Shown one piece after another: positions 21,853 through 39,674 of a stretch of 64,000 bases of DNA (position 1 is the stretch's first letter; every line of letters starts with the position of its first letter). The notes beneath the pieces were generated by a model, which had not been told where the DNA came from, did not search any database, and worked only from the letters and a program-made list of their open reading frames with translations. Both the position numbers and the translations under genes were made by a program. Source of the stretch: Thermoactinomyces vulgaris (lineage in GTDB: Bacteria > Bacillota > Bacilli > Thermoactinomycetales > Thermoactinomycetaceae); assembly GCF_003688725.1 (NCBI RefSeq), contig NZ_REFP01000008.1, positions 248,001 through 312,000 of the forward strand, written 5' to 3'.

Positions 21853-22009
21853 TGAATTCACCTCCCGTACAAGGATTCCGCATCCCTAAAATGCAACATG
21901 CAATATTCTAGCATGGGAAGGGGCAAAAAGCAACAATCCCCCAAGAATAAATCCAATGACATCAAGCAAACTAAAAACAGGAGGAAGTGAATGGAAGGAG
22001 AAAAGAAAC

Positions 22010-23122
22010 ATGAATCAGGATCCATCGCAAGGTCATCAGGTTGATTTGAGCCGGTATAACATCCGGACCGATTTGGCGCGTGAATCGCATGAATTGGCAA
22101 CCAAAAGAAACAGGAGCGGGAACGGTTCCATTCCGGGAGTGCGGATCGAGGAAAAGACGGAGGACGGGATCACAACCAGCTGGATTTGGATTGAAAATGA
22201 CCGGGGTGCGGAAGAGATGGGAAAAGTGCCAGGCACTTATTTAACCATTGAAGCTCCGGAACTGAGATCGAGAGATTCCGTCTTCAGCCAGAAAGTGGCG
22301 GGCCATTTTGCAGAACAGTTTGCCCGGTTTTTAGATGAAGCCGGAATTGGGAAAGATGATTCCTGCCTGATTGTCGGGTTGGGTAACTGGAATGTCACGG
22401 CCGATGCATTGGGGCCCCTGGTGGTGAAGCACACCATGATTACTAGGCATTTGTTTGAGCTGGAACCGGAATCCGTTGAGGAAGGATACCGGTCGGTCAG
22501 TGCGTTGTCCCCGGGCGTGTTGGGGTTGACCGGACTGGAGACGAGCGATATTGTACGGGGAGTGGTTGACAAAGCCAAACCGGATTTTGTCATTGCTTTT
22601 GATTCGTTGGCTTCCCGGGCTTTGACCCGTGTGAATACGACCATTCAGGTGGCGGATACCGGCATCAATCCGGGATCCGGGGTGGGAAACAACCGGAAAG
22701 CGTTAACCCGGGAAACGTTGGGGGTTCCCGTGATTGCCATCGGTGTTCCCACCGTGGTGGATGCGGTGACCATTGCCTATGACACGATTGATTTTGTCAT
22801 CTCCCATCTGGGAAGAGAAATTCATGGCGAAAGAAACAACCCGCTGGATCCTTACAACCGCCCGACAGTGAAGGATTTGAAAAATTATCAGCTTCCTTCC
22901 GGCACCGCGCGGGAAGTGTTGGGAATGTTCGGTCGTCTGAATGAACAGGAAAAACGCCAGCTCATTCATGAAGTTCTTTCCCCGCTGGGACAGAACCTGA
23001 TCGTGACCCCAAAAGAAGTGGACTCCTTTATTGCCAATGTGGCCAAAATGATCGCCAACGGTGTCAATTGTGCCTTGCATGATGCGGTGACGATGGATAA
23101 TGTGGCTTCGCACGTCAATTGA
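22010..23122 (+). CDS. gpr: germination protease GPR
   Basis: This 370-residue aspartic-type protease is made as a zymogen in the forespore and degrades alpha/beta SASPs at germination. The segment around residue 15 (SRYNIRTDLARE) matches the GPR autoprocessing region. The conserved core includes VGLGNWNVTADALGP near residue 120 and DSLASRAL near 205. ATG 22010 follows AAGGAGAAAAG. A likely substrate, an alpha/beta SASP, is encoded at 42944 in this window. Confidence 0.95.
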   Translation: MNQDPSQGHQVDLSRYNIRTDLARESHELATKRNRSGNGSIPGVRIEEKTEDGITTSWIWIENDRGAEEMGKVPGTYLTIEAPELRSRDSVFSQKVAGHFAEQFARFLDEAGIGKDDSCLIVGLGNWNVTADALGPLVVKHTMITRHLFELEPESVEEGYRSVSALSPGVLGLTGLETSDIVRGVVDKAKPDFVIAFDSLASRALTRVNTTIQVADTGINPGSGVGNNRKALTRETLGVPVIAIGVPTVVDAVTIAYDTIDFVISHLGREIHGERNNPLDPYNRPTVKDLKNYQLPSGTAREVLGMFGRLNEQEKRQLIHEVLSPLGQNLIVTPKEVDSFIANVAKMIANGVNCALHDAVTMDNVASHVN

Positions 23123-23140
23123 AGACGGCGTACGGGATCA

Positions 23141-23178
23141 AAAACGGAAGCTTGTGAGCGGAACAGGCTTCCGTTTTT
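23141..23178 (+). terminator. terminator of gpr
   Basis: The stem AAAACGGAAGC/GCTTCCGTTTTT has a 15-base loop and is followed by a T tract. Confidence 0.8.
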
Positions 23179-23324
23179 ATGTCCGCCTGTTTGTTGAAGG
23201 GGCGGGGTTTTGTTCCGGATTTCTATCAACCCTTCTCCTGTATTTTTTAAGTCTCATAGGTTCTACTTTTGCCGGTTTTTTCATAGCTTAGGGATGAGAG
23301 ACAAGCTGGCAAAGGGTGAACCGG

Positions 23325-24464
23325 ATGAATCATCGGTATCGAAGGTTTATGACGTTAAACTTGGCACGTCCGCGGACCAGAAGAATCTTGGTTTTTTTAT
23401 TTTTGGCCATCGCGGTGTTGTTTTCATTTGCGGGAGCCTGGGTCATGGTTCAGGCTGAAAACAGCATGCAGGGTTCGGATTTTAGCCGGGTGACTTCCCG
23501 CATTTCGGCCAAAACCCTGGCCATGGTGATGGGGGAGAACATCCCGTATTTTCAGGAAGAAATCGGTTCGGCCGGATTGGACGGGATTGTGTCCCGGATG
23601 ACTTTTGAACTTTTAACCAGCATGAATTTACAAGATCCCCGTACCTTTCTGGGCCGGGAATTGCCGATGTACGCACTTTTTGACAGCGAAATTGACGTGG
23701 CGAGCGCCGATGTCGATTACACATCGATTCCCATTGAATCGGCTCCTCCTCCCGAATTGGAAAAAGAGATCATCAAAGCGATGGAAAAGCCGGATCAGGA
23801 CCGCGCCAGCACAACCCAAAGCGGGATCAAACAGAAAAAAGTATTGATTTACTCGACGCATTTTTGGGAGTCTTATCTTCCGGAGTTGGGAGAAAAAAAT
23901 CCGCAGAAAGCATCGCATATCGAAAAAAACATCACCCTCGTTTCTCAACATCTGGCCCAAGTGCTCGAGAAGATGGGCATCGGGGCGGTCACGGCGGAAC
24001 GGAAATACACTTGGGATTCGGGAGCGTACAAGCAATCGAGGAAAATGGTGCAATCCGTGATGGGGCAGCATGAAGGGATCACTTATCTGATCGATTTGCA
24101 CAGGGATGCGCAACGAAGGGACAAAACCACCAAAACTTACAACGGGAAAAGCTATGCCCGGTTAGCTTTTGTCGTGGGAAAATCGAGCAAGCATTTTGAG
24201 CAAAATCTGAAGCTGGCCCGTGAGTTGCACAAAGAAATCAACAAACAATATCCCGGATTGTCACGGGCGGTGATTATTAAAGAACGGACAAATGGGAACA
24301 ACGGTGAATATAACCAGTCTTTATCCCCCAATAGCATGCTTGTGGAAGTGGGAGGGGTGGATAACACCTTCGAAGAAGCATACCGGTCGGTCGAAGTGTT
24401 GGCGGAAGTGCTGGCGCAACGGATTCATGATGCCACGCCGGTGATGCGGCAAGAAGGATCTTAA
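23325..24464 (+). CDS. spoIIP: stage II sporulation protein P
   Basis: This roughly 379-residue amidase/endopeptidase works with SpoIID and SpoIIM in peptidoglycan digestion during engulfment. One N-terminal membrane helix lies near residues 18-40. The SpoIIP domain follows, with LIYSTHFWESYLPEL near residue 170 (His and Glu of the metal site kept), YLIDLHRDA near 245, and SMLVEVGGVDNTFEEA near 340. ATG 23325 is preferred to GTG 23316 because AAAGGG is then at normal distance. The mother-cell promoter could not be placed with confidence. Confidence 0.93.
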   Translation: MNHRYRRFMTLNLARPRTRRILVFLFLAIAVLFSFAGAWVMVQAENSMQGSDFSRVTSRISAKTLAMVMGENIPYFQEEIGSAGLDGIVSRMTFELLTSMNLQDPRTFLGRELPMYALFDSEIDVASADVDYTSIPIESAPPPELEKEIIKAMEKPDQDRASTTQSGIKQKKVLIYSTHFWESYLPELGEKNPQKASHIEKNITLVSQHLAQVLEKMGIGAVTAERKYTWDSGAYKQSRKMVQSVMGQHEGITYLIDLHRDAQRRDKTTKTYNGKSYARLAFVVGKSSKHFEQNLKLARELHKEINKQYPGLSRAVIIKERTNGNNGEYNQSLSPNSMLVEVGGVDNTFEEAYRSVEVLAEVLAQRIHDATPVMRQEGS

Positions 24465-24486
24465 AACAGTTTTGAGGTGGAGAAAC

Positions 24487-24840
24487 ATGCGGGTTTGGGT
24501 GCAGATAATCGGGCTTTTGGCCATGTTGGTTTTCGGTATTTTTATCGGGATGGATGTTGCGGAACGGAATATGCAAAAAATGCAAGGGATCGAAGGGGCG
24601 CCACGGGCCATTCAAATTACTCCACAGGAAGGGAAAATCGAAATCTCCGTCTTCGGACAAACCATCGGATCCGAAGAAGCGTCGGCGAAAGCCGGTTTAA
24701 AGAATCCGGAAAAAAGCGCTGGTCAGGAAATGAGGGAAGGAACCAATTATCTGGCTGAAACCGGAAATCAGGTCGGCACGATGATCCGTGAACTGTTGCG
24801 CGAGTTGGCCGACCGGTTGTTTGCCTGGACAAGATCATAG
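24487..24840 (+). CDS. yqxA: YqxA family small membrane protein
   Basis: This 117-residue protein has a single N-terminal membrane helix (residues 4-24) and a polar domain containing TPQEGKIEISVFGQTI. It resembles the DUF3679/YqxA family found after spoIIP in Bacillus, and it sits exactly there, 22 bases after spoIIP and before lepA. GAGGTGG precedes ATG 24487. The function is unknown. Co-transcription with spoIIP suggests a sporulation role. Confidence 0.8.
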   Translation: MRVWVQIIGLLAMLVFGIFIGMDVAERNMQKMQGIEGAPRAIQITPQEGKIEISVFGQTIGSEEASAKAGLKNPEKSAGQEMREGTNYLAETGNQVGTMIRELLRELADRLFAWTRS

Positions 24841-24865
24841 TTTTTTCCATCTCAAATCCGGCGGA

Positions 24866-24896
24866 TGCATGGGGGTCGCGGTCCCATGCTTTTTTT
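24866..24896 (+). terminator. terminator after yqxA
   Basis: The stem GCATGGG/CCCATGC is followed by seven T residues. Confidence 0.85.
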
Positions 24897-24902
24897 ATGT
24901 CG

Positions 24903-24931
24903 TTGAAACCTCCTGTGTCTGCTGATATAAT
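24903..24931 (+). promoter_or_regulatory. sigma-A promoter of lepA
   Basis: TTGAAA (24903-24908) and a perfect TATAAT (24926-24931) have the ideal 17-base spacing, just after a terminator. Confidence 0.75.
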
Positions 24932-24975
24932 TTAGGAATGCAGTCTTGCATTTTGCAGGAGGGAAAAGAACGGGA

Positions 24976-26793
24976 ATGGAAAACAAGAATCATCAGAAAC
25001 AAATACGTAATTTTTCTATCATCGCCCATATTGACCATGGAAAATCGACGTTGGCAGATCGGATTTTGGAGAAAACGGGTGCTTTGTCCGAAAGGGAAAT
25101 GCAAGATCAATTCCTGGATCAGATGGATTTGGAAAGAGAACGGGGAATTACCATCAAGTTGCAGACCGTGCGTATCCCCTACAAAGCCAAGGATGGGAAA
25201 GAGTATGTGTTAAACCTGATTGATACGCCGGGACATGTTGACTTTTCCTATGAAGTTTCCCGTTCTTTGCAAGCATGTGAAGGAGCGTTGTTGGTGGTGG
25301 ATGCTTCCCAGGGGGTGGAAGCGCAGACGCTGGCCAACGTTTATTTGGCTTTGGAAAACGATCTTGAAATCATTCCCGTTATCAATAAAATCGATCTACC
25401 CAGCGCGGACCCGGAGCGCGTGAAGCAGGAAATTGAAGACGTGATTGGTTTGGATGCCAGTGATGCAGTCTTGGCATCGGCGAAAGCCGGCATCGGGATT
25501 GAAGAGATTCTGGAGCAGATTGTGGAAAAGGTTCCCCCGCCGGAAGCGGATGAATCCAGTCCGCTTAGGGCGCTCATTTTTGATTCGGTTTATGATTCCT
25601 ATAAAGGCGTCATTATTTATACCCGTGTTTTTGAGGGGACGATCAAAAAGGGCATGGGCATCCGGATGATGGCATCGGGAAAAACCTTTGAAGTGACCGA
25701 AGTCGGCGTTTTCACACCGCGCCCCGTGATCACCAATGAGTTGAAGGCCGGTGAAGTGGGATTTGTCTGTGCCAACATCAAAAACGTGCGCGACACCCGG
25801 GTGGGGGACACGATCACCGACCGGGACCGTCCGGCTGCAGAGCCGTTGGCCGGTTACCGGCGCATCAATCCGATGGTCTTTTGCGGGTTGTATCCGGTGG
25901 ATTCGTCCGACTACGACAATTTGCGGGAAGCCCTTGAAAAGCTGGAATTGAATGATGCTTCCTTGTCTTTTGAGCCTGAGACCTCACAAGCGCTCGGATT
26001 CGGTTTCCGTTGCGGTTTTCTGGGGCTTTTGCACATGGAAATTGTCCAGGAACGGATTGAACGGGAATTTGGAATTGAATTGATCACCACCGCTCCCAGT
26101 GTGGTATACCGGATTCACAAAACCGATGGCACGATGTTGGAAATCGAAAATCCGACCTTGATGCCGCCGGTGCAGGAGATTGACCGGGTGGAAGAGCCGT
26201 ATGTGAAAGCCAGCATCATGGTTCCCAATGACTATGTCGGTGCGGTGATGGAAATATGTCAAAATAAAAGAGGACAATACGTCAATATGGATTACCTGGA
26301 TCAAAACCGGGTCAACCTGGTTTATGAGTTGCCTTTGGCCGAGATTGTATACGACTTTTTCGACCAATTGAAATCCAACACCAAAGGGTATGCCTCCTTT
26401 GATTATGAATTGATCGGTTACAAGGAAGCGAATCTGGTGAAACTGGACATTCTCCTCAATGGAGAGATTGTGGATGCCTTGTCGTTTATCGTCCACCGGG
26501 ATCGTGCCTATCAGCGCGGCCGGGCGTTGGTGGAAAAGCTGAAAAGCCTGATTCCGCGGCAAATGTTTGAAGTGCCCGTACAGGCGGCCATCGGCAACAA
26601 GGTGATCGCAAGGGAAACCATCCGTGCCGTACGGAAAAATGTTTTGGCCAAATGCTACGGCGGCGACGTCAGCCGCAAAAGAAAGCTGCTTGAAAAGCAA
26701 AAAGAAGGAAAGAAAAGAATGAAGTCTGTGGGAAGCGTGGACGTTCCCCAGGAAGCATTCATGGCCGTGCTGAAGATTGACGAACAGAAATAA
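24976..26793 (+). CDS. lepA: elongation factor 4 (LepA)
   Basis: This 605-residue translational GTPase is related to EF-G. G1 is AHIDHGKST near residue 17, G3 DTPGHVDF near 80, and G4 NKID near 135. The LepA-specific C-terminal domain ([24 protein letters not shown]) ends the protein. ATG 24976 gives the standard N-terminus. Upstream in-frame TTG 24946 precedes the GGAGG and is not used. It has its own sigma-A promoter. Confidence 0.97.
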
Positions 26794-26800
26794 AGAGGAA

Positions 26801-26836
26801 AAGCCGCAGGCGGGTGCAACGCTTGCGGCTTTTATC
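26801..26836 (+). terminator. weak hairpin between lepA and hemW
   Basis: The stem AAGCCGCA/TGCGGCTT has only TTTATC after it, so termination would be partial. hemW may be read through from lepA. Confidence 0.45.
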
Positions 26837-26851
26837 AAGGAGGTGGGGGTT

Positions 26852-28003
26852 TTGCCGCCCAAATCGGTTTATGTTCATATTCCTTTTTGTACAAATAAAT
26901 GTTATTACTGTGACTTTACGGCTTATGTCGTGGGCGGACAGCCGGTGGATGATTATTTGGATGCGCTGAAGCGGGAAATGGAGATGGTGACGGAAGCAGC
27001 CAAGCCGCAAGAAATTGAAACCATTTTTATCGGAGGCGGCACCCCGACCGTGTTGACTCCAAAGCAAATGGAAAAACTCCTTCGGGATTTGCGTCTTCAT
27101 TTTCCGGATTGGTCCGACCAGCTTGAATTCACCGTTGAAGCCAATCCCGGCACCACCAGTCCCGAACTGCTTTCCGTCATGCGCGAAGGCGGCGTGAACC
27201 GGATCAGTTTTGGGGCGCAAACCTTCCGGCCGGATCTGTTAAAGCGAATCGGGCGCATTCACAGCGCCGGGGAAATCCGGGAAAGTGTCGACGCCGCCCG
27301 CATGGCCGGTTTTGACAACATCTCACTGGATCTGATGTTCGGCCTCCCGACGCAAACCGTCGACGATCTGAAACATACATTAAATGAAGCCATGTCACTC
27401 GATCCGGGTCATTTTTCCTGTTACAGTCTGAAAATTGAAGAGGGTACGGTGTTTTATCACTTGCACCAACGGAAGGAATTGCCGCTTCCGACGGAGGACG
27501 AAGAGTTTGAGATGTACCAATGCATCCGTTCGTTTATGCGGGAAAAGGGGTATATCCAATATGAAGTGAGCAATTTTGCCAAACCCGGAAGGGAGAGCAG
27601 GCACAATACCACGTATTGGCTGAATGAGGAATACTATGGTTTGGGAACCGGGGCGCACGGCTATGTCGGTTCCACCCGCTACGCGAACGTGACGGGGGTT
27701 CGGGCCTATATCGATCAAATCCGGCAGGGGCATTTGCCGGTGAAAGAATCGTATCAGGTCAGTCCGGAAGAAGATATGGAAAACTTCATGATCCTGGGGC
27801 TTCGCCTGTTAAAAGGGGTGAAACGATCCCGTTTTGACCGCCGGTACGGTTGCCGGCCGGAAGAAGTGTTTGATACGGTTTTGAGGAATTTGCAAAGTCA
27901 AAAATTCATCAAAATGGAGGGAGACTGGATCTCCTTGACGGAAAAAGGGCTTTTGTTTGGAAATGAGGTGTTCGCCTCATTTCTCAACGGCGTGGAATTA
28001 TAG
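26852..28003 (+). CDS. hemW: HemW, heme chaperone (radical SAM family)
   Basis: This 383-residue radical SAM protein carries CTNKCYYCDF (CX3CX2C with the following Phe) near residue 14, then GGGTPTVL near 58 and ANPGT near 97. HemW-type proteins bind heme and help deliver it. They are often misnamed coproporphyrinogen oxidase, and the fourth cysteine pattern of HemN is absent. TTG 26852 follows AAGGAGGTG at good spacing. It lies between lepA and hrcA as in Bacillus. Confidence 0.92.
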   Translation: MPPKSVYVHIPFCTNKCYYCDFTAYVVGGQPVDDYLDALKREMEMVTEAAKPQEIETIFIGGGTPTVLTPKQMEKLLRDLRLHFPDWSDQLEFTVEANPGTTSPELLSVMREGGVNRISFGAQTFRPDLLKRIGRIHSAGEIRESVDAARMAGFDNISLDLMFGLPTQTVDDLKHTLNEAMSLDPGHFSCYSLKIEEGTVFYHLHQRKELPLPTEDEEFEMYQCIRSFMREKGYIQYEVSNFAKPGRESRHNTTYWLNEEYYGLGTGAHGYVGSTRYANVTGVRAYIDQIRQGHLPVKESYQVSPEEDMENFMILGLRLLKGVKRSRFDRRYGCRPEEVFDTVLRNLQSQKFIKMEGDWISLTEKGLLFGNEVFASFLNGVEL

Positions 28004-28012
28004 AGGCATCCG

Positions 28013-28041
28013 TTGACATCATTTCAGCCGTTTGGTAATTT
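28013..28041 (+). promoter_or_regulatory. sigma-A promoter of the hrcA heat-shock operon
   Basis: TTGACA (28013-28018) and TAATTT (28036-28041) are spaced 17 bases apart, immediately before CIRCE, as in other HrcA-controlled operons. Confidence 0.65.
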
Positions 28042-28054
28042 AAAAATAGTATTT

Positions 28055-28081
28055 TTAGCACTCGTCCTTCAGGAGTGCTAA
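28055..28081 (+). promoter_or_regulatory. CIRCE operator (HrcA binding site)
   Basis: The inverted repeat TTAGCACTC / GAGTGCTAA is perfect, with a 9-base spacer, the exact CIRCE consensus. HrcA bound here should repress the operon that starts at 28098. Confidence 0.98.
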
Positions 28082-28097
28082 CAAGGAGGGAAGGCAG

Positions 28098-29120
28098 ATG
28101 TTAAGCGAGCGGCAGAAGATGATCCTTTGGGCAGTCATTGATGATTACATCTTATCGGCTGAACCGGTTGGTTCACGCACGGTTTCCAAAAAGGAAGGAA
28201 TTCATTTTAGTGCCGCAACGGTTCGCAACGTCATGGCTGATCTGGAAGAGATGGGATTTTTGGAACAACCGCACACATCTGCCGGAAGAGTACCTTCACA
28301 AAAAGGGTATCGTTTTTATGTCGATCATTTGTTGAAGCCGTATATGTGGTCAAAGAAGGATTTAATGGCTTTGCATGATTATTACGTCACACGGATGGAT
28401 CATGTCGAGCAAGCAATCAAACATACCAACTCGATTTTGTCACAACTGACCAATTATATGACCTTTATCTTGGGGCCGAAAATTTCGGAAAGCAGATTGA
28501 AACACCTGCAAATCGTTCCGCTGAATGACCGGACCGCAGTTTCCATATTGGTTACGGATACGGGCCATGTCTATCAACAGCACATCACCGTTCCTGAAGG
28601 GGTATCATTGTCGGAGATTGAGCGGTTGACGAATTTCCTCCGTTTCCGTTTGACCGGTTCTCCCATTTCCAAATTAAAGCGGATTGTCGTCAAAGAGCTG
28701 GCTGACGAATTGCAGAGACATGTGGACCATTTTGAAAAACTGACAGACTTGCTGGACCAAATTCTGCTGGCCCGGCCGGACGAACGCTTGTATACCAGCG
28801 GGACGACGAAGATTTTGGAACAACCTGAATTCCGCGATGTGGATAAAATGAAATCCCTGCTCGACTTCCTTGAAAATGACGATGAGATCATATCCCTTCT
28901 CCAAACTTCTTCCGAAGGGGTGCAGGTCCGCATTGGGTATGAAAACCATTTGGAAGCAGTGAGGGATTGTAGTATCATTTCCGCATCGTATATGATTAAT
29001 GGGGAACCTGTTGGCACAATCGGCGTGTTGGGCCCGACCCGGATGGATTACGGGCGGGTGATCGGAATCATTCAGTTGTTGGCAAAAGATTTCTCAAGGC
29101 GTTTGGATTCGTTTTTTTGA
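28098..29120 (+). CDS. hrcA: heat-inducible transcriptional repressor HrcA
   Basis: This 340-residue repressor has an N-terminal winged helix (AEPVGSRTVSK...SAATVRNVMADLEE) and a GAF-like dimerisation domain ending in GVLGPTRMDYGRVI. It represses CIRCE-bearing promoters and is kept active by the GroE chaperonin in Bacillus. AAGGAGGGAAGG precedes ATG 28098. The CIRCE upstream means autoregulation. It is followed directly by a group II-type chaperonin gene instead of grpE. Confidence 0.97.
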   Translation: MLSERQKMILWAVIDDYILSAEPVGSRTVSKKEGIHFSAATVRNVMADLEEMGFLEQPHTSAGRVPSQKGYRFYVDHLLKPYMWSKKDLMALHDYYVTRMDHVEQAIKHTNSILSQLTNYMTFILGPKISESRLKHLQIVPLNDRTAVSILVTDTGHVYQQHITVPEGVSLSEIERLTNFLRFRLTGSPISKLKRIVVKELADELQRHVDHFEKLTDLLDQILLARPDERLYTSGTTKILEQPEFRDVDKMKSLLDFLENDDEIISLLQTSSEGVQVRIGYENHLEAVRDCSIISASYMINGEPVGTIGVLGPTRMDYGRVIGIIQLLAKDFSRRLDSFF

Positions 29121-29207
29121 AAATGGAGATTAATGGATTATCATGGTTTTGAGAGGGAGGGGGATCTGAATCCCCCGTCCCTGTGTATAGAAAGGGGGGA
29201 ATACCCG

Positions 29208-30752
29208 TTGCCCGAAAACGAGTCTTTTGTCCGTAATCCGGATGCGCGGATTTCGGCGTTGGAGAGTAATGCCAAAGCCGTAAAAGAGGTGGCTTCAGCC
29301 GTATCTTCCACCCTGGGGCCCAAGGGGCTGGATACGATGCTGGTCAACTCCAAAAACGAAGTGGTGGTCACCAATGACGGCGTTACCATCCTCGAATTGA
29401 TGAAGACGGAGCATCCGGCTGCGAAAATGATTGTCAACGTTGCCAAAGCACAGCAGGAGGAAATGGGGGATGGAACGACCACCGCCACGTTGCTGGCCTC
29501 CGCGCTGGTGGATGAAGGGGTTAAACAAGTGGCGCACGGGGTTCCTGTAACCAAAGTCATTGACGGGATACAAAAGGGAATCCGGTTTGCATTGCACAAA
29601 ATGCAGGAAAAAGCACGTCCCATTTACGAATTAGATGATGAATGGCTGCAGCGGATTGCCTTCACCGCCTGCCGCGAGGATGAAGACATCACAATGGCGG
29701 TGACGGAAGCCGCGTATATATTGGGACGGGAAAAGTTGTTGGATAAAGGATTTAAGTTTTCATCCTGTGTAATGGCCCATCCCCGTAGCGAGACACGGGT
29801 GGTTCCGGGGGTCCTTCTCAAGCAGCCTCATATGGACAGTGAGGTGCAGCGGAAAAAAGGAGAGACGCTTGTGCTCGTTTTGGCGGATTCTCTGGAGCCG
29901 GATCAAGATCCGAAAGATTTCGCGTCGGATGATGAGAACAACAAACAAGAAAGATTAAAAGAAGAGTTTTATGTGATGTTGGAACACATCATCCATTTAA
30001 ATGTGGGGCTGATTGTGGCAGGAGGTTCTGTTGATCCGTATGCAGAGAGTGTTTTTGCGGATGCAGGGATTGTCGTGGTGGAAAACGTGGCAGAGGATGA
30101 TCTGAGAAAAGTCGCGGAACACACCCGCGCGAGGATTGTGAAGCGGAGTGCTTTGCGCCGCAGCTTGCCGGACGGCATGAAGCCGTTTTTGGGTGTGTGC
30201 AAAGAGGTTGCCGGCGACAACGAGCTTCAATGTGTGAGCGTGACCGGCGGTCAAGGAAAGCCGTATGCCACCATTGTTGTCGGAGCGACCACGGAAGATG
30301 TGATTAAAGAGCAGGAACGCATTGCCAAAGATGCGGCATCGGCGGTGCAGGCTGCCATCCGGGGCGGTTTTGTGCCGGGAGGAGGCGCCGTTGAGTTGTT
30401 TATTGCCCGCCATGTGGAACATTACCGGGAAACCATCCAGGGAACGGAACGGTTTGGCGTGTCTGCCGTGGCGGAAGCTCTCCAAAAGCCGATGAAACAA
30501 GTTGTGGCCAATGCAGGCTTTAATCCGTTGGAAAAGATCGAGTCCGTCAAGGTTTTTCAAGCCAAACGTCAATCCGACTCCTTGGGGGTGGATTGCGATC
30601 GTGGCACAATTGTCGATATGATTGAAATGGGTGTGGTCGATCCGTTGTTGGTGAAAGCACATGCACTGAAAACAGCCGGTGAGGTTGCGATCGCCATCTT
30701 GCGAATTCATGCCATTGTGAAAATGAAGGAAAACCCCGTTTCAAAAACTTAG
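29208..30752 (+). CDS. archaeal-like group II (bacterial 'group III') chaperonin
   Basis: This 514-residue protein is of the thermosome/CCT type, not GroEL. LGPKGLDTMLV is near residue 36, TNDGVTIL near 58, the nucleotide motif GDGTTTATLLA near 88, and PGGGAVELFIARH near 390. The C-terminal KTAGEVAIAILRI matches the thermosome equatorial domain. Length is close to archaeal thermosome subunits. TTG 29208 follows AAAGGGGGG by about 8 bases, and an in-frame start at 29133 has no site. It lies between hrcA and grpE under CIRCE control. Such genes were described in a few Firmicutes dnaK operons as group III chaperonins with a built-in lid. The sequence ends ILRIHAIVKMK, lacking a Gly-Met tail. Confidence 0.93.
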   Translation: MPENESFVRNPDARISALESNAKAVKEVASAVSSTLGPKGLDTMLVNSKNEVVVTNDGVTILELMKTEHPAAKMIVNVAKAQQEEMGDGTTTATLLASALVDEGVKQVAHGVPVTKVIDGIQKGIRFALHKMQEKARPIYELDDEWLQRIAFTACREDEDITMAVTEAAYILGREKLLDKGFKFSSCVMAHPRSETRVVPGVLLKQPHMDSEVQRKKGETLVLVLADSLEPDQDPKDFASDDENNKQERLKEEFYVMLEHIIHLNVGLIVAGGSVDPYAESVFADAGIVVVENVAEDDLRKVAEHTRARIVKRSALRRSLPDGMKPFLGVCKEVAGDNELQCVSVTGGQGKPYATIVVGATTEDVIKEQERIAKDAASAVQAAIRGGFVPGGGAVELFIARHVEHYRETIQGTERFGVSAVAEALQKPMKQVVANAGFNPLEKIESVKVFQAKRQSDSLGVDCDRGTIVDMIEMGVVDPLLVKAHALKTAGEVAIAILRIHAIVKMKENPVSKT

Positions 30753-30765
30753 GAGGATTTTTAAG

Positions 30766-31398
30766 ATGAATCAAGAAAAAGATGAGCTCCAGCATCAACC
30801 GGAAGAAGCCCGTTTAGAGCAGGAGCAAAATCGGGAAGAAAAAGAATTACATATCCAAAAGGAACCACCGAAGGAAGAGGCAGTTTCCGAAGAAGAAAAA
30901 GACGGCGGGAAAGTGCTTGAAAAGTTGGAGGCAGAGTTGGAAGAAGCGAGACAATCTGCAGATCATTGGAAAAAACAAGCAGAAGAAAACAAAGAATTGT
31001 ATTTGCGGGCGTTGGCCGATTACGAGAACTACCGCCGGCGTGCCCGCAAGGAAAAAGAGGAAGCGTTGAAATACAGTGTGGTTCCTTTTTTGGAAAATCT
31101 GTTGCCGGTCCTTGACAATTTCGAGAGGGCGCTTGATGCCGCTGACGCCAATCAGGATGTCCAGGCGCTTCAAGAAGGCATAGAAATGGTGTACCGGCAA
31201 TTTTTAAATGTGTTGTCCCAAGCGGGACTCACTTTGATTGAAACTGAAGGGAAACCATTCAATCCTCATGAACACAATGCGGTGATGCAGGTTGAAGCGG
31301 ATGATGTGGAATCCGGAATGGTGGTTGAGGAATTGCAACCGGGGTACCGGTATTTGGATCGCGTCATTCGTCCTTCAATCGTGAAAGTCAGTAAATAG
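30766..31398 (+). CDS. grpE: GrpE nucleotide exchange factor
   Basis: This 210-residue protein releases ADP from DnaK. A long acidic, Glu-rich low-complexity N-terminus (about 50 residues) precedes the coiled coil (ADHWKKQAEENKELYLRALAD) and the beta domain with the signature NPHEHNAVMQVE near residue 167. AGGAGG lies upstream of ATG 30766. It is 13 bases after the chaperonin gene, so they are co-transcribed. Confidence 0.97.
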   Translation: MNQEKDELQHQPEEARLEQEQNREEKELHIQKEPPKEEAVSEEEKDGGKVLEKLEAELEEARQSADHWKKQAEENKELYLRALADYENYRRRARKEKEEALKYSVVPFLENLLPVLDNFERALDAADANQDVQALQEGIEMVYRQFLNVLSQAGLTLIETEGKPFNPHEHNAVMQVEADDVESGMVVEELQPGYRYLDRVIRPSIVKVSK

Positions 31399-31439
31399 AT
31401 AACATCTATCTTCATATTTGTCACTGAAGTGGGAGGTAG

Positions 31440-33296
<1,857 letters not shown>

Positions 33297-33323
33297 GGAG
33301 GAGCAGGAAGAGTTCTCCTCGAC

Positions 33324-33373
33324 TGGAAAGTCAGCGTCGGGGCTCTGCCTTGAGTTGACTTTCCCTTTTTTTG
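33324..33373 (+). terminator. hairpin with T tract between dnaK and dnaJ
   Basis: GGAAAGTCA (33325-33333) pairs with TGACTTTCC (33356-33364) and is followed by TTTTTTT. It probably attenuates transcription so that dnaJ and downstream genes are made at a lower level than dnaK. Confidence 0.75.
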
Positions 33374-33421
33374 TGAAAGGTCAAAACCAAATCGTTTCAT
33401 CAATGAAGGGGAGGTGACCCG

Positions 33422-34543
33422 GTGAGCAAGCGCGATTATTATGAGGTGCTTGGCGTGAGTCGTGATGCCTCGGAAAGCGAGATACGGAAAGCCTATCGGA
33501 AATTGGCGCGTAAATACCACCCGGATGTAAACAAAGAAAAAGATGCGGAACAGAAATTTAAAGAGATTAAAGAAGCTTATGAAGTCTTGAGCGATCCGCA
33601 GAAAAAGGCACAATATGACCGCTTTGGACATGCCGATCCCAACCAGGGGTTCGGGGGGGCTGGCGGTTTTGAAGCCGATTTTGGTTTTGGAGACATTTTT
33701 GACATGTTTTTCGGCGGCGGCCGCCGCAGCACCAATCCGCATGCTCCCCGCAAAGGGGCTGATTTGGAATACCGTTTGACAGTGGAGTTTAAAGATGCGG
33801 TTTTTGGGAAAAATGTGGAAGTGGCGATTCCGCGAACCGAAACGTGTGAAAAATGTCATGGTTCCGGGGCCAAACCCGGAACCCAACCGGAAACCTGTTC
33901 CACCTGTCAAGGAACCGGTCAATCCGAAGTGGTGCAAAATACGCCTTTCGGCCGCATTGTGAACCGGCGGATTTGTCAGGTATGTAACGGATCGGGTAAA
34001 ATCATCCGTGAAAAATGCAGCGGATGTTCCGGAACCGGCCAAGTGAAACGGAAAAAGAAAATCAACGTCAAAATTCCTGCCGGGATTCATGAAGGTGCCC
34101 AACTGCGCGTGAGCGGGGAGGGAGAACCCGGCCAAAACGGCGGACCGGCAGGGGACTTATACATTACCGTTTATATCAAACCGCATGAATTCTTCAAAAG
34201 AGAAGGTGACGATTTGGTCTGTGAACTGCCGATCACCTTTGGACAGGCTGCATTGGGAGATGAAGTGATCGTCCCCACCTTAAACGGCCGTGCCAAACTG
34301 AAAGTTCCTGCCGGCACACAGACCGGAACCGAGTTTCGCCTTCGCGGAAAAGGTGTTCCCCGTTTACGCGGATACGGGGAAGGGGATTTGCGCGTGAAAG
34401 TCCGTGTGGTCACACCAACCAAATTGACGGAGGAACAAAAAGAAGCCTTGCGCCATTTCAGCCATTTATGCGGCGAATATATCAAACAAGAACAAAGCAC
34501 GAACTTTTTCGATAAGATGAAACAGGCATTTCGAGGCGAGTAA
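33422..34543 (+). CDS. dnaJ: co-chaperone DnaJ (Hsp40)
   Basis: This 373-residue protein has a J domain with the HPD motif (YHPDVNK near residue 33), a Gly/Phe-rich stretch, four CxxCxGxG zinc repeats ([32 protein letters not shown], residues about 140-215), and C-terminal substrate domains. GTG 33422 follows GGGGAGGTG. It stimulates DnaK ATPase. A terminator follows the stop. Confidence 0.98.
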
Positions 34544-34549
34544 AGAGGG

Positions 34550-34576
34550 AAACGGGCAATTTCGCCCGTTTTTTCT
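34550..34576 (+). terminator. terminator between dnaJ and prmA
   Basis: The stem AAACGGGC/GCCCGTTT has a 6-base loop and is followed by TTTTTTC. Confidence 0.75.
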
Positions 34577-34601
34577 TTGAGGTGAAGGGAGCAATGAGCG
34601 G

Positions 34602-35546
34602 ATGGATTGGCTGGAAGTGAGTGTCCGTACAAGCCACGAGTCGGCAGAAGCCATCAGTGAATTCTTACAGGAGATGGGGGCCGACGGGGTTGCCATAGAA
34701 GATTCGAACGTCTTGAATCAGGATTTTGAAAAGCGTTATGGGGAAATCATCGAATTGACCCCGGAGGATTATCCGGAAGAGGGCGTGGTCATCAAAGCTT
34801 ATTTGTCTGATTTGCAATCGGTCGATCCGGAAATCCTGAAAAAAAGAATCAAGGAGAAATTGGAATCGCTGAAGCAATACGGATTGTCCCCCGGGCAAGG
34901 GTTGGTGGGGATCCGAAGCGTGAGTGAACAGTCTTGGGAAAATGAATGGAAAACATACTACAAGCCGGTCCGGGTGACGGATACGATCACCATCAAGCCG
35001 GTGTGGGAGGATTATCAGCCGGAAAGCCCGGATGAAAAAATCGTCCGGCTGGATCCCGGAATGGCCTTTGGAACCGGGACGCATCCGACAACCAAACTGT
35101 GTATCCAGTGTTTGGAAAAATATTTGCCGCGCGATGCCAAGGTGATAGATGTGGGATGCGGAAGCGGCATTTTAAGCATTGTATCCGCCATGCTCGGTGC
35201 GAAAAACGTTTTGGCGTTGGATTATGATCCCCTGGCCGTGGAAAAGGCAAAAGAAAACATTGGTCTCAATCCAATCGAAAGCGGGATCCGGGTGGAAAAA
35301 GGCGATTTGTTAAAAGGGGTGTCCCAAACGGCGGATGTTGTCGTCGGCAATCTGTTGGCCGAATTGATTCTGCCGATGGTTCCGGATTTGCCGCGTGTCT
35401 TGGTGCCCGGCGGCATTTTTATCGGCTCGGGGATTATTGAAGAAAAAGCCGATGCAGTGGAACAGTCTCTGGTTTCGTGCGGGCTTCAAGTGCTGGAAAA
35501 GATTCATATGGATGGCTGGGTAGCCATTGTGGCAAAAAAATGGTAA
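34602..35546 (+). CDS. prmA: ribosomal protein L11 methyltransferase
   Basis: This 314-residue SAM methyltransferase has an N-terminal L11-recognition domain and a Rossmann domain with VIDVGCGSGILSI near residue 180 and the amino-methyl motif GNLLAEL near 248. PrmA trimethylates lysines and the N-terminus of L11. ATG 34602 is preceded by GAAGGGA. It is at the usual place between dnaJ and rsmE. Confidence 0.95.
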   Translation: MDWLEVSVRTSHESAEAISEFLQEMGADGVAIEDSNVLNQDFEKRYGEIIELTPEDYPEEGVVIKAYLSDLQSVDPEILKKRIKEKLESLKQYGLSPGQGLVGIRSVSEQSWENEWKTYYKPVRVTDTITIKPVWEDYQPESPDEKIVRLDPGMAFGTGTHPTTKLCIQCLEKYLPRDAKVIDVGCGSGILSIVSAMLGAKNVLALDYDPLAVEKAKENIGLNPIESGIRVEKGDLLKGVSQTADVVVGNLLAELILPMVPDLPRVLVPGGIFIGSGIIEEKADAVEQSLVSCGLQVLEKIHMDGWVAIVAKKW

Positions 35547-35563
35547 AATGGCAGGAGTGTCAA

Positions 35564-36310
35564 ATGCAAAGATATTTTGTATCCGAAGACGCATTTCAAG
35601 GTGAATTCGTTTGGTTAACAGGGGAAGAAGTGCACCACATTCGCAACGTGATGCGGTTTCAGCCCAATGATCAAATCATTGTCTGTAAAGAAGATGGAAT
35701 GGATTATCTGTGCTCCATTTCGGAAATCAACCGCAACGAAATCCTTTGCGAAGTGGTGGAAAAACGGCCTTCGAAAGGAGAGCCGAAAACTAGGATTACT
35801 GTTGCCCCTTCTTTGGTGAGAAGCAATAAACTCGAATGGATCATACAAAAGGGGACCGAAATCGGTGCTGTTTCCTTTCAGCCCTTTTGTTCTGAACGTT
35901 CATTGATCCATATAGATGATAAAAAGGAAAGAAAGAAGCGGGAGCGTTGGCAACGGATTGCAAAGGAAGCGGCCGAACAGTCGCATCGCGGCAAAGTGCC
36001 GGCTGTCTTGCCTGCTTTGTCATGGAAAGAATTTCTCGCTGAGATGGAAAGGTTTCCGCTTGTTCTCATCGCGTATGAAAAAGGGGGAGTCCCCATCCGT
36101 CAAGCGATGGCCGGCTCGCAAGCGGATGAAATCATGCTTGTGACCGGACCGGAAGGCGGGTTTACTGAAGCCGAAATCGATGAGGCCAAAGCAAGGGGAG
36201 CCGTGCCGGTCACATTGGGAAACCGGATTCTCAGAGCCGAGACAGCACCGCTGGTTGCTCTTTCTTGCATATTGTTTGCAAGACATGAATTGGGAGGTGA
36301 AACACAGTGA
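35564..36310 (+). CDS. rsmE: 16S rRNA (U1498-N3) methyltransferase
   Basis: This 248-residue SPOUT-class methyltransferase has an N-terminal PUA-like domain (HHIRNVMR) and a C-terminal knot with LVTGPEGGFTEAE near residue 196 and LGNRILRAETA near 224. ATG 35564 gives the family start (MQRYFV), with GCAGGAG upstream. In-frame ORF sequence before it overlaps prmA and is not used. It overlaps mtaB by 4 bases. Confidence 0.95.
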   Translation: MQRYFVSEDAFQGEFVWLTGEEVHHIRNVMRFQPNDQIIVCKEDGMDYLCSISEINRNEILCEVVEKRPSKGEPKTRITVAPSLVRSNKLEWIIQKGTEIGAVSFQPFCSERSLIHIDDKKERKKRERWQRIAKEAAEQSHRGKVPAVLPALSWKEFLAEMERFPLVLIAYEKGGVPIRQAMAGSQADEIMLVTGPEGGFTEAEIDEAKARGAVPVTLGNRILRAETAPLVALSCILFARHELGGETQ

Positions 36311-37653
36311 AAACGGTGGCTTTTCATACGTTGGGTTGTAAAGTGAATGCCTATGAAACCGAAGCCATCTGGCAAATGTTTAAAAAAGCGGATTACAAAC
36401 GGGTGGAATTTGAAGAGGAAGCCGATGTTTATGTGATCAACACTTGTACGGTCACCAATACGGGAGACCGGAAAAGCCGGCAAATGATCCGCCGGGCGAT
36501 CCGGCGCAATCCTGACGCGGTCATCGCGGTGACCGGTTGCTATGCCCAAACCTCCCCTGCCGAAGTGGCTGCGATTCCCGGGGTGGATGTCGTGGTCGGG
36601 ACACAAGGGCGCGAAAAGCTGATCGATTATGTGGAACAATACATGCGGGAACGTGAACCGATCAACGCTGTGGGGAACATCATGAAGCAACGCAAGTTTG
36701 AAGAATTGGATGTGCCCACGTTTTCGGACCAAACCCGGGCATATCTCAAAATCCAGGAAGGATGCAACAACTTTTGCACGTTCTGCATTATTCCCTGGGC
36801 GAAAGGGTTGTCCCGCAGCCGTCAGCCTGAAAATGTCCTGAAACAAGCGCGCCAGTTGGTGGATGCCGGTTATAAAGAGATTGTCCTGACCGGTATTCAC
36901 ACAGGTGGTTACGGGGATGACTTTGAAGATTACAAGCTGGCTGACTTGTTGTGGGATTTGGATAAAATTGAAGGGTTGAAAAGAATCCGGATCAGTTCCA
37001 TTGAAGCCAGCCAGATCGATGACCGGGTGATCGAGGTGTTGAACGCATCCGAAAAAATGTGCCGCCACCTGCATATTCCGTTGCAGGCGGGAGATGACGC
37101 CGTGTTAAAACGGATGCGCCGCAAATATACGACAGAAGAATACAGGGAAAAAATCATGAAGTTGCATGAAGCCATGCCGGATGTGGCGATCACCACCGAC
37201 GTGATTGTCGGCTTCCCGGGAGAAACGGAAGAACAATTTGAGCGCGGATACCGTTTTATTGAAGACTTGAAAATGTATCAGCTGCATGTCTTCCCATACT
37301 CCAAAAGAACCGGAACCCCCGCCGCCCGCATGCCGGACCAAGTGCCGGAAGAAGTGAAACACGAACGGGTCCGCAAGCTTATTGAACTGTCCAAACGGTT
37401 GACGGTGGAGTATGCCCGGCGTTTTGTGGGCGAAGTGGTGGAAGTGATTCCGGAACAACCGTTTAAAGAGGACCCGGACAGCGGGCTTTATATGGGTTAT
37501 TCGGATAACTACCTGCAAGTGGTTTTCCCGGCTGATCCCGAATGGGTTGGAAAAGTTTGCCGGGTGAAAATTGATCGTGTTGATCCGGAGTATTGTTACG
37601 GCACTTTCGTGCGTGTGGTGGATGAAGTGCCCCGTCCGGCCAGGGTTGGTTGA
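36307..37653 (+). CDS. mtaB: tRNA t6A37 methylthiotransferase MtaB
   Basis: This 448-residue radical SAM enzyme converts t6A37 to ms2t6A37 in tRNA. The N-terminal UPF0004 domain has three cysteines (LGCKVNAYE, NTCTVT, TGCYAQ). The radical SAM motif is CNNFCTFC near residue 153, and a C-terminal TRAM-type domain follows. GTG 36307 overlaps the rsmE stop. Family assignment to MtaB (YqeV) rather than MiaB follows the context and the N-terminal pattern. Confidence 0.93.
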   Translation: MKTVAFHTLGCKVNAYETEAIWQMFKKADYKRVEFEEEADVYVINTCTVTNTGDRKSRQMIRRAIRRNPDAVIAVTGCYAQTSPAEVAAIPGVDVVVGTQGREKLIDYVEQYMREREPINAVGNIMKQRKFEELDVPTFSDQTRAYLKIQEGCNNFCTFCIIPWAKGLSRSRQPENVLKQARQLVDAGYKEIVLTGIHTGGYGDDFEDYKLADLLWDLDKIEGLKRIRISSIEASQIDDRVIEVLNASEKMCRHLHIPLQAGDDAVLKRMRRKYTTEEYREKIMKLHEAMPDVAITTDVIVGFPGETEEQFERGYRFIEDLKMYQLHVFPYSKRTGTPAARMPDQVPEEVKHERVRKLIELSKRLTVEYARRFVGEVVEVIPEQPFKEDPDSGLYMGYSDNYLQVVFPADPEWVGKVCRVKIDRVDPEYCYGTFVRVVDEVPRPARVG

Positions 37654-37663
37654 GGTCGGGATG

Positions 37664-37703
37664 GAAAAAGGTTGTTAACCGGTCGGGGTTGACAACCTTT
37701 TTT
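37664..37703 (+). terminator. terminator of the hrcA-mtaB gene cluster
   Basis: The stem AAAAAGGTTGT/ACAACCTTTTTT has an AT-rich flank and T tract. Confidence 0.85.
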
Positions 37704-37731
37704 CTTACCTTTTTTTAAAGGAGGAAGGAAG

Positions 37732-38160
37732 TTGAAAGAGATTTCTGCAGGCGGTGTTGTGTTTCGGGAAAAGCACGGAAGATACGAGATTTTGATGATT
37801 AAAGACCGTTTTGAACATTGGACGTTGCCGAAAGGAAAACAAGAGCCGGGCGAAACCGTTGAGGAAACAGCCTTGAGGGAAATCGAAGAGGAAACGGGGA
37901 TCAAAGGGGAAATTCTGCGTCCCCTGGTGACCGTGCAGTATACATATGAACATCTGCAGCACGGGGAAACGGACAAGGTTGTGCACTATTTTTTGGTGAA
38001 AGCGATGGACGGAACAGAATCCCCTCAGTTGGAAGAGATAGATGATGTCACATGGCTCACGGTGAAAGAAGCGTTGTCAAGACAAGCGCTTCACGGCTAT
38101 TCGAATAATCAGGAGGTCATGGATCAGGCAGTTGATTTCCTGACCAATGAGTGCGGTTAA
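37732..38160 (+). CDS. NUDIX hydrolase
   Basis: This 142-residue protein carries a complete Nudix box (GX5EX7REUXEEXGU) from GKQEPGE to EEETGI near residues 38-60, which binds divalent metal for hydrolysis of nucleoside diphosphate-linked compounds. The N-terminal SAGGVVFRE and WTLPKGK are typical of (di)adenosine-polyphosphate or MutT-like members. The substrate is not predictable. TTG 37732 follows AAAGGAGGAAGG. The stop shares TTAA with the convergent transporter gene. Confidence 0.9.
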   Translation: MKEISAGGVVFREKHGRYEILMIKDRFEHWTLPKGKQEPGETVEETALREIEEETGIKGEILRPLVTVQYTYEHLQHGETDKVVHYFLVKAMDGTESPQLEEIDDVTWLTVKEALSRQALHGYSNNQEVMDQAVDFLTNECG

Positions 38161-39095
38161 AAGCTTGCTTTTTCGGGAACCAGACGGGTGATAAAGCGGG
38201 CGAATTGGTCGCAAAACGGAAGCACCGCGATGGAACAAATGAGATTGAACAAGGTCTGAATGTGGGCGATTTGCGTTGCCGGATCTCCGGACAAATACGG
38301 AGCCAGCCGGGCGATGACCGGTATGAACGGGGTGAACAAGATGGCGCCTGCCACATTTAAGATCAGATGGGAAAGGGCGACTTGTTTGGCGGCAGGGATG
38401 GTGCGGATGGACGCCATGAGTGCTGTGACGCAGGTGCCGATGTTGCTTCCGAACACAACGGCAATGGCAAAAGGAAGCGGAATCACCTGGGCGGCATAAA
38501 ATCCCATGGCCATGGCGATGCAGGCGCTGCTGCTGTGAATCAGCGCCGTAACCAGGATGCCTGCGGCAAGACCCGAAACAATGGGGTTTCCGCCGTGATG
38601 GATGAGCCAGGAAACCCATCCTTGTTCCTTCAGGGATTCCGTGATGCTTTGCATCCATTCGATTCCCCAAAAGATGGCTCCAAATCCGAGACAGACCGAG
38701 CCGGTGTTTTTGAGGAACGGATTGGAAAGCAAAGTGAGGCCGCCGCCGATGACCAACAGCGGAATGGCAAAATCTTCGATTTTCAAGGCCAGGATTTGGG
38801 TGGTGATGGTGGTTCCCACATTGCTTCCCAGGATGATTCCCAACGATTGGGAAAAAGTGAGCATACCGGCATTGACGAAACCGATGGTCAACACCGTCAC
38901 GGCACTGCTGGACTGCAAAAAAGCGGTGGTGACCGTTCCGGTCCAAAAACTGCGCACCGGTGTTTTCGTGAATCGCAGCAACACGGACTGCAAGCGGTCA
39001 CGGGCCAGGTTTTCCAAGCCTGTCCGCATCTTGGAAAGTCCCCATAAAAAAATAAAAAGACCAAACCCGAACGGAACCAACAATTGAATCGGCAT
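38157..39095 (-). CDS. Na/Pi cotransporter family protein (NptA/YqeW-like)
   Basis: This 312-residue membrane protein has two inverted repeats of the Na/Pi symporter family, each with a QSSSA/HSSSA signature (TAFLQSSSAVT near residue 60 and ALIHSSSACI near 190) and a GSNVGTT/GSNIGT motif. It likely moves phosphate or another anion with sodium. There is no C-terminal PhoU domain, so it is the short form. It is convergent with the NUDIX gene, and the stops overlap in TTAA (38157-38160). Confidence 0.9.
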   Translation of the reverse strand: MPIQLLVPFGFGLFIFLWGLSKMRTGLENLARDRLQSVLLRFTKTPVRSFWTGTVTTAFLQSSSAVTVLTIGFVNAGMLTFSQSLGIILGSNVGTTITTQILALKIEDFAIPLLVIGGGLTLLSNPFLKNTGSVCLGFGAIFWGIEWMQSITESLKEQGWVSWLIHHGGNPIVSGLAAGILVTALIHSSSACIAMAMGFYAAQVIPLPFAIAVVFGSNIGTCVTALMASIRTIPAAKQVALSHLILNVAGAILFTPFIPVIARLAPYLSGDPATQIAHIQTLFNLICSIAVLPFCDQFARFITRLVPEKASF

Positions 39096-39160
39096 CGGCT
39101 TGTTTCCCTCCTTGATTTGATTTATATGTGGACATGCGGAGGGAATGACCGATAAAATAA

Positions 39161-39183
39161 ATAAAAGCCCTGCAACAGGGCTG
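39161..39183 (-). terminator. terminator of the 39189 gene
   Basis: On the minus strand the stem AGCCCTG/CAGGGCT has a 4-base loop and is followed by TTTATTTATTTT. It lies 5 bases past the stop of the preceding minus-strand gene. Confidence 0.75.
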
Positions 39184-39188
39184 GCGCA

Positions 39189-39572: not shown

Positions 39573-39674
39573 GGTTTTCACCCCTTTTTTCCTTTCAGGC
39601 TGATATAGTGTATGTCAAACGGGAAAAATGGGTGAATACATAGATTGCCCTGAAAAAGTAGGGAGGGAACTTGT

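What the first reader, a model, noticed from the sequence alone, without database searches (positions are those of the whole stretch)
29208..30752. Archaeal-like chaperonin inside the CIRCE/dnaK operon
A 514-residue thermosome-type protein (LGPKGLDTMLV, GDGTTTATLLA, PGGGAVELF) sits between hrcA and grpE under a perfect CIRCE. Most bacteria have GroEL only. Related bacterial group II ('group III') chaperonins are known from a few Firmicutes dnaK operons. Its presence in a Bacillales-type background, its pairing with DnaK-DnaJ-GrpE, and the division of labour with GroEL are little studied.
Basis: partly seen in the sequence, partly recalled or inferred. Interest (0 to 1): 0.72.

Follow-up and report, generated by a model that had tools for sequence, protein, structure and literature searches.

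The report
Archaeal-type chaperonin with an eroded lid
A heat-shock operon of a spore-forming bacterium carries a known kind of archaeal-like protein-folding chamber (a Group III chaperonin), but in this bacterium's lineage the built-in lid, which is strikingly constant elsewhere, has been rewritten and shortened, and in two relatives its tip is gone.

Summary
ORF 29208 (TTG)-30752 encodes a thermosome-type chaperonin between hrcA and grpE, behind a perfect CIRCE. Trees place it in the bacterial Group III clade, not with GroEL or the archaeal thermosomes sampled. Sequence and fold point to the solved Group III chaperonin of Carboxydothermus. The genome also has CIRCE-controlled groESL. This is a known kind of system and not rare: 127 of 398 sampled phylum genomes have the gene, in this operon slot in 114 of 124 loci read.

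The unexpected part is the lid. Outside the window's order its aligned length is 29 in 147 of 147 sequences, 65 of them a later check set; inside, 8 of 31 deviate, two lacking 13 and 15 residues, tip included. The hydrophobic tip that An et al. 2017 call strictly conserved is complete in 0 of 31 order members and 74 of 82 others. The window protein departs at 10 of 13 lid positions conserved elsewhere, against 23 of 145 other conserved positions. ATPase residues are intact. I read it as a working HrcA-controlled ATPase ring whose built-in closure is weakened. Against this: within genera the lid is still under purifying selection.

The parts
28013..28041 (+). sigma-A-like promoter in front of CIRCE: TTGACA, 17 nt, TAATTT (second hexamer only 3 of 6)
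   Evidence: read directly from the sequence; not listed by the consensus scan, which asks 4 of 6 in each hexamer
28055..28081 (.). perfect CIRCE operator (HrcA site)
28098..29120 (+). hrcA, repressor of the operon
   Evidence: Pfam PF01628 2e-68; TIGR00331 344 bits over its cut-off 197
29208..30752 (+). Group III chaperonin, 514 aa, TTG start
   Evidence: Pfam, PDB sequence match, tree, fold match
29880..29999 (+). lid segment of the apical domain (residues 225-264 = Ch-CPN 223-263), one residue shorter than the standard length and with changed tip residues (F238, N244, Q247)
30766..31398 (+). grpE
31446..33296 (+). dnaK
33422..34543 (+). dnaJ

Best explanation
The gene encodes a Group III chaperonin subunit, expected to form a homo-oligomeric double ring that hydrolyses ATP (inferred from Ch-CPN). 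HrcA bound to CIRCE shuts the hrcA-cpn-grpE-dnaK-dnaJ operon (and, at its own CIRCE, groESL) in normal growth; heat relieves the repression (inferred from the site and from known HrcA biology). The ring then works downstream of or beside DnaK-DnaJ-GrpE (inferred from operon membership alone). What is special here: the set of hydrophobic lid-tip residues, through which neighbouring lids touch in the closed Ch-CPN ring, is no longer complete in any of 31 members of the window's order (shown in sequence). In the window's own lineage the lid has been further rewritten and shortened by one residue (shown). So this ring probably closes more loosely, or with a wider aperture set by a more hydrophobic base of the lid helix (F254-Y255-V256-M257), and acts more as an open-topped client-binding ATPase than as a sealed cage (inferred).
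For: Group III clade: SH-aLRT 95 and 96; window sister to its congener 100; order clade 100. PDB best hits: 9rwq (ancestral Group III) 496 bits and 5x9u (Ch-CPN) 379 bits, against 266 for the best Group II chain, itself an ancestral reconstruction. Best fold matches 5x9v and 5x9u. D56/D87/R155/D373/L439 equivalents present in the window protein. Operon order hrcA-cpn-grpE in 114 of 124 loci, perfect CIRCE in 120 of 124. Lid length 29 in 147 of 147 outside against 23 of 31 in the order, Fisher p 3.7e-7, kinship not corrected. Tip triad (237/243/246) all hydrophobic in 0 of 31 against 74 of 82 and 58 of 65 of the later set. On a tree built without the lid columns, loss of the aromatic at 246 needs 1 change, lid-length change 5, tip deletion 2. 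Window: 10 of 13 conserved lid positions changed against 23 of 145 elsewhere in the protein, one-sided p 8.4e-6. Window against congener: lid pN/pS 0.59, equatorial 0.10. Position 254 hydrophobic in 22 of 31 against 17 of 147 (6 of 82 and 11 of 65).
Against: In six close pairs within the order the lid is still under purifying selection (dN/dS 0.043, against 0.049 in 18 outside pairs), so the lid is not simply free to drift in the order as a whole. At order level, loss of conserved positions is not significantly richer in the lid (3 of 13 against 13 of 145, p 0.13). The window-congener comparison is near saturation (pS 0.59-0.77). Most order members keep two of the three tip hydrophobics (18 of 31), and the window keeps a hydrophobic residue at 237 (Phe) and Phe at 253. 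The AlphaFold model has low confidence in parts of the apical domain and no control was run. No assembly, closure or client data exist here.
Confidence: 0.55

Rival explanations
1. An ordinary Group III chaperonin that closes normally; the lid changes are tolerated drift or compensated by other contacts, without functional meaning.
For: ATPase residues conserved; the second lid helix is predicted (241-263); purifying selection on the lid within genera of the order; 18 of 31 order members keep two of the three tip hydrophobics; same operon slot.
Against: The lid tip is more conserved than the rest of the apical domain elsewhere (mean identity 0.60 against 0.46), and at matched equatorial divergence tip identity is 0.76 outside against 0.40 in the order; lid length never changes in 147 of 147 outside sequences; two relatives lost the tip.
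Confidence: 0.33
2. The gene is decaying: GroEL has taken over, and the chaperonin is on the way to loss in this order.
For: No match in 11 of 42 order genomes (one of the 11 is only 67% complete), and in 10 of 10 of them with a findable hrcA the next operon frame found is grpE. Two relatives in the order lost the catalytic Asp56 equivalent.
Against: Open frames of normal length in all 31 order members read; equatorial pN/pS 0.10 for window against congener and dN/dS 0.036 in close pairs; D87 and D373 in 113 of 113.
Confidence: 0.1
3. With its own lid eroded, the ring is capped by GroES, which the same HrcA regulon supplies.
For: groES-groEL with a perfect CIRCE in the same genome; the residue that I align with GroEL Leu234 is hydrophobic in 22 of 31 order members against 17 of 147 others (the match to GroEL and the role of Leu234 are recalled and read by eye).
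Against: The positions that I align with GroEL Leu259, Val263 and Val264 are mostly Glu, Thr and Asp, so the recalled GroES-binding groove is not formed; eightfold against sevenfold ring symmetry (An et al. for Ch-CPN; GroES sevenfold recalled).
Confidence: 0.05
4. The lid differences are sequencing, assembly or alignment artefacts.
For: One genome per species; each of the two tip deletions rests on one genome; gap placement by MAFFT is uncertain by a residue or so.
Against: Open frames throughout; the congener and several genera share altered lids; in-frame changes only.
Confidence: 0.02

Closest known systems
Ch-CPN, Group III chaperonin of Carboxydothermus hydrogenoformans (PDB 5x9u, 5x9v; An et al. 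2017, PMC5635000, parts 1-4 of 6 read)
   Same: Sequence (379 bits), best fold match, no nucleotide-sensing loop, D56/D87/R155/D373 and L439 equivalents; Group III operon slot
   Different: Lid tip: L237->F, F243->N, Y246->Q, with F253 kept; lid one residue shorter; N256->M
Archaeal thermosome (Group II)
   Same: Fold, built-in lid instead of GroES, NDG and GDGTTT motifs
   Different: Separate clade in the trees; far below the thermosome cut-off (TIGR02339 262 against 671 bits); several residues shorter where Group II has the nucleotide-sensing loop (alignment; An et al. give six)
GroEL (Group I) of the same genome
   Same: Cpn60 superfamily, CIRCE control
   Different: No groES next to the window gene; GroEL model TIGR02348 166 against cut-off 582 bits; GroEL clade separate
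Engineered lidless Mm-cpn (PDB 3izk, 3izn, 3j02; titles)
   Same: Removal of lid residues, as in two relatives of the window protein (13 and 15 residues missing)
   Different: Those are laboratory constructs of a Group II protein; here the tip loss is natural, partial and in Group III

Membership tests
Group III chaperonin | Falls in the Group III clade, apart from Group I and II | tested here: met
   47 Group III rows form one side of a branch, SH-aLRT 95 and 96; Group II was represented by only 5 haloarchaeal thermosomes, plus Mm-cpn in the second tree
Group III chaperonin | Encoded in the hrcA/dnaK operon | tested here: met
Group III chaperonin | No nucleotide-sensing loop between alpha6 and alpha7; Arg155 in its place | tested here: met
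   segment 146-164 is 19 residues, as in Ch-CPN, in all 113 sequences aligned; window R156
Group III chaperonin | ATPase residues D56, D87 and D373, GDGTTT | tested here: met
   window D57, D88, D375; GDGTTT in the translation
Group III chaperonin | Ball-and-socket inter-ring joint (L439 with K109/V111/M411/Y414) | tested here: inconclusive
   L and V kept, Y->F, but K109->H and M411->T in the window protein
Group III chaperonin | Four lid-tip residues L237, F243, Y246, F253, stated as strictly conserved by An et al. 2017 | tested here: not met
   window F, N, Q, F; 0 of 31 order members keep all of 237/243/246 hydrophobic. I treat this as a conserved trait, not as the definition of the group, hence 'variant'
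Group III chaperonin | Hexadecamer, ATP-driven closure without co-chaperonin, refolding activity | not testable with these tools
   needs protein
Group II thermosome | Over the curated thermosome cut-offs; nucleotide-sensing loop | tested here: not met
   (262 against 671; 266 against 450; 253 against 400)
Group I GroEL | Over the GroEL cut-off; groES beside it; GroEL clade | tested here: not met

The most novel reading that the evidence does not exclude
In this order of spore-formers the Group III chaperonin is losing its built-in lid by natural evolution: the ring-closing tip contact was weakened once at the base of the order, and the tip was then polarised, shortened or deleted several times. 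Hence extant proteins, the window's among them, span lidded, eroded and tipless rings and work increasingly as open-topped ATPases. This would be a natural series for testing what the lid is for, and whether lidded and lidless chaperonins can interconvert.
Probability: 0.3. Interest if true: 0.7.

Novelty: new variant of a known kind. Interest (0 to 1): 0.42.

Why it matters
The chaperonin itself is a known kind. The lid result matters because the built-in lid is the feature that separates Group II and III chaperonins from GroEL, and the lid-tip residues are reported as strictly conserved in Group III. A bacterial order in which that set is incomplete in every member read, and the tip twice deleted, while the ATPase core is kept, gives a natural test of whether tight closure is needed. 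It also bears on An et al.'s proposal (as cited in PMC12696368, passages) that GroES may have come from an excised Group III lid.

Tried and rejected
Taking the gene as a rarity: rejected by the sampling. A hrcA-chaperonin fusion suspected in L293, L167 and L288 (long open frames): Pfam shows only Cpn60 in them, so I read the extra length as unstopped upstream frame. Order-wide relaxed selection on the lid: not supported by close pairs. GroES capping through a GroEL-like groove: disfavoured by the helix-I equivalents. AU test of 'window with GroEL' gave p 0.224, so it does not reject that grouping; I treat it as uninformative, because an unrooted test can be met by moving the long GroEL branch onto the window's tip while the window stays beside its congener (my inference; the constrained tree was not printed). 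Second AlphaFold job with 3 rows: useless (mean pLDDT 40). The viral-contig scan kept 80 hits of 22-37% identity, not classified further. The organism could not be named; a guess of Thermoactinomycetales is recalled, untested. Rfam at gathering threshold: no match in 22000-40000.

Rows dropped: of 126 deduplicated Group III ORFs, 13 of unusual length were left out of the 113-row alignment; 11 of these 13 carry the lid stretch, all of length 29, and the other 2 are fragments without it. The 65 phylum hits not fetched at first were fetched later, not deduplicated, and used as a check set.

Full report
WHAT IS THERE. The ORF at 29208-30752 (TTG start, 514 aa) is a Cpn60/TCP-1 chaperonin (Pfam 9.4e-108), between hrcA (28098-29120) and grpE (30766-31398), followed by dnaK and dnaJ. 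A perfect CIRCE lies at 28055-28081 and none arose in 100 shuffles. A TTGACA-17-TAATTT promoter-like pair sits just upstream of it (read; its second hexamer is weak). Flanking genes are a germination protease, SpoIIP, a DUF3679 protein, LepA, HemW, PrmA and an RNA methyltransferase, an ordinary spore-former neighbourhood. The genome (2.56 Mb, 15 contigs) holds one further Cpn60 gene: a groEL, preceded by groES (Pfam Cpn10 1e-38), with a perfect CIRCE of its own.

WHAT IT IS. By sequence the nearest solved proteins are an ancestral Group III chaperonin (9rwq; labelled ACII in the sequence list, named ACIII in the paper, and in the fold list) at 496 bits and Ch-CPN (5x9u) at 379 bits; the best Group II chain, an ancestral reconstruction, has 266 bits and the best natural one 200. 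The AlphaFold model (mean pLDDT 73, poor in parts of the apical domain) matches 5x9v and 5x9u best. In trees of 70 and 61 rows, 47 Group III rows form one clade (SH-aLRT 95 and 96), apart from GroEL and from five haloarchaeal thermosomes (plus Mm-cpn in the second tree). The window's order is a clade (100), and the window is sister to its congener (100). Both trees carry a warning that long branches meet (archaea with GroEL). An AU test holding the window with GroEL gave p 0.224, so it does not reject that grouping; in an unrooted test the long GroEL branch can be moved onto the window tip, so I do not count it either way.

HOW COMMON. The gene was found at strict E-values in 31 of 42 genomes of the order, 60 of 398 of the class and 127 of 398 of the phylum, the window's own genome counted. 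In 114 of 124 loci the neighbours are hrcA and grpE; the other ten are contig ends, three loci where the search saw dnaK and no grpE, and two cases where my frame rule hid hrcA. A perfect CIRCE was found in 120 of 124. In 10 of 10 order genomes without the gene (of 11; hrcA was not found in the eleventh, which is 67% complete) grpE is the next operon frame after hrcA, at most about 300 bases on, so absence is clean. An et al. 2017 (PMC5635000; parts 1-4 of 6 read) describe 195 Group III members, encoded with one exception in the DnaK operon, and PMC5904260 (passages) states that both chaperonin types of Firmicutes are under HrcA, citing Techtmann and Robb 2010 (not held). So the finding as given is an already known kind.

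THE LID. An et al. name Leu237, Phe243, Tyr246 and Phe253 as strictly conserved at the lid tip and describe hydrophobic lid-to-lid contact through the tips in the closed ring. I aligned 113 Group III proteins with Ch-CPN (31 from the window's order, 82 from elsewhere in the phylum). The lid (Ch 228-256) is 29 residues in 82 of 82 outside sequences. In the order it is 29 in 23, 28 in 3, and 30, 27, 26, 16 and 14 in one each. All of 237/243/246 are hydrophobic in 74 of 82 outside and 0 of 31 inside; inside, 18 keep two, 8 one and 5 none. At matched equatorial identity (0.70-0.78), tip identity is 0.76 outside and 0.40 inside; the rest of the apical domain is 0.61 and 0.44. As a check I then fetched all 65 remaining phylum hits: lid length 29 in 65 of 65, tip triad complete in 58 of 65, and at most 2 of 13 conserved lid positions changed. 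Over both sets, lid length departs in 8 of 31 against 0 of 147 (Fisher p 3.7e-7; sequences are related, so the p-value overstates).

ON THE TREE. With the lid columns left out, the aromatic at 246 is lost once, at the base of the order; lid length changes 5 times, the tip is deleted twice (L031 in family f3 lacks Ch 237-251; L034 in family f1 lacks 236-248), hydrophobicity at 243 changes 5 times and at 237 7 times (quick tree of 46 rows, 12 open forks). Position 254 is hydrophobic in 22 of 31 inside, against 6 of 82 and 11 of 65 outside.

THE WINDOW PROTEIN. Of 158 positions conserved in at least 85% of the 82 outside sequences, the window departs at 10 of 13 in the lid, 7 of 19 in the rest of the apical domain, 7 of 30 in the intermediate and 9 of 96 in the equatorial domain (lid against rest, one-sided p 8.4e-6). 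Among the 31 order members only the two tip-deleted relatives score higher (11 of 13); the highest of the 82 outside is 4 (partly by construction) and of the 65 check sequences 2. Against its congener (L004), pN/pS is 0.59 in the lid, 0.34 in the rest of the apical domain and 0.10 in the equatorial domain, near synonymous saturation. The ATPase residues (D57, D88, R156, D375) and the inter-ring Leu (L441) are kept.

WHAT SPEAKS AGAINST. In six close pairs of the order the lid has dN/dS 0.043, no higher than in 18 outside pairs (0.049), so the genera sampled keep their altered lid under selection. At the level of the whole order the loss of conserved positions is not significantly concentrated in the lid (3 of 13 against 13 of 145, p 0.13). 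So the fair statement is: one order-wide change of the tip contact, then strong further erosion in several lineages, the window's among them.

HOW IT MOST LIKELY WORKS. Shown: operon, CIRCE, intact catalytic residues, altered lid. Inferred: HrcA releases the operon on heat; the protein forms an ATP-driven double ring like Ch-CPN; without the full hydrophobic tip contact, closure is looser or has its contact moved to the more hydrophobic base of the lid helix; DnaK is the likely client donor, as others have proposed from the operon (PMC5220055 passages; An et al.). The two tip-deleted relatives still have open frames and the D87 and D373 residues, though one of them (L034), like its neighbour L032, has lost Asp56.

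IN PRINT? Searches on Group III and archaeal-like chaperonins, thermosome with Thermoactinomyces, lidless chaperonin and dnaK operon with Bacillota showed, in the titles and abstract starts listed, no paper on lid loss in Group III. The library holds only open-licence papers and the listings were capped, so this is weak evidence of novelty.

Noticed in passing
window 33325-33372: A strong hairpin (18 pairs) followed by CTTTTTTT lies between dnaK and dnaJ (z -3.0 for 33296-33400, 2 of 200 shuffles as good), like an intrinsic terminator or attenuator inside the operon; the simple scan found no excess of terminator-like sites in the region.
   Followed up: partly
L032, L034, L153, L173, L302 and 8 of the 65 later loci: The catalytic Asp56 equivalent (Asp52 of GroEL, recalled) is Ala in 13 of 178 Group III chaperonins; natural variants that might hydrolyse ATP slowly.
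   Followed up: no
L026 (G040): Arg155 equivalent, described by An et al. as completely conserved in Group III, is Gly in one sequence of 178.
   Followed up: no
L285 (G342), L289 (G567), L290 (G416): Seemingly broken copies: a 334-aa fragment and two genes split into two frames, which suggests loss in progress or sequence errors.
   Followed up: no
L318-L327: Ten order genomes without the chaperonin have grpE as the next operon frame after hrcA; whether this is loss or never gained was not reconstructed.
   Followed up: partly
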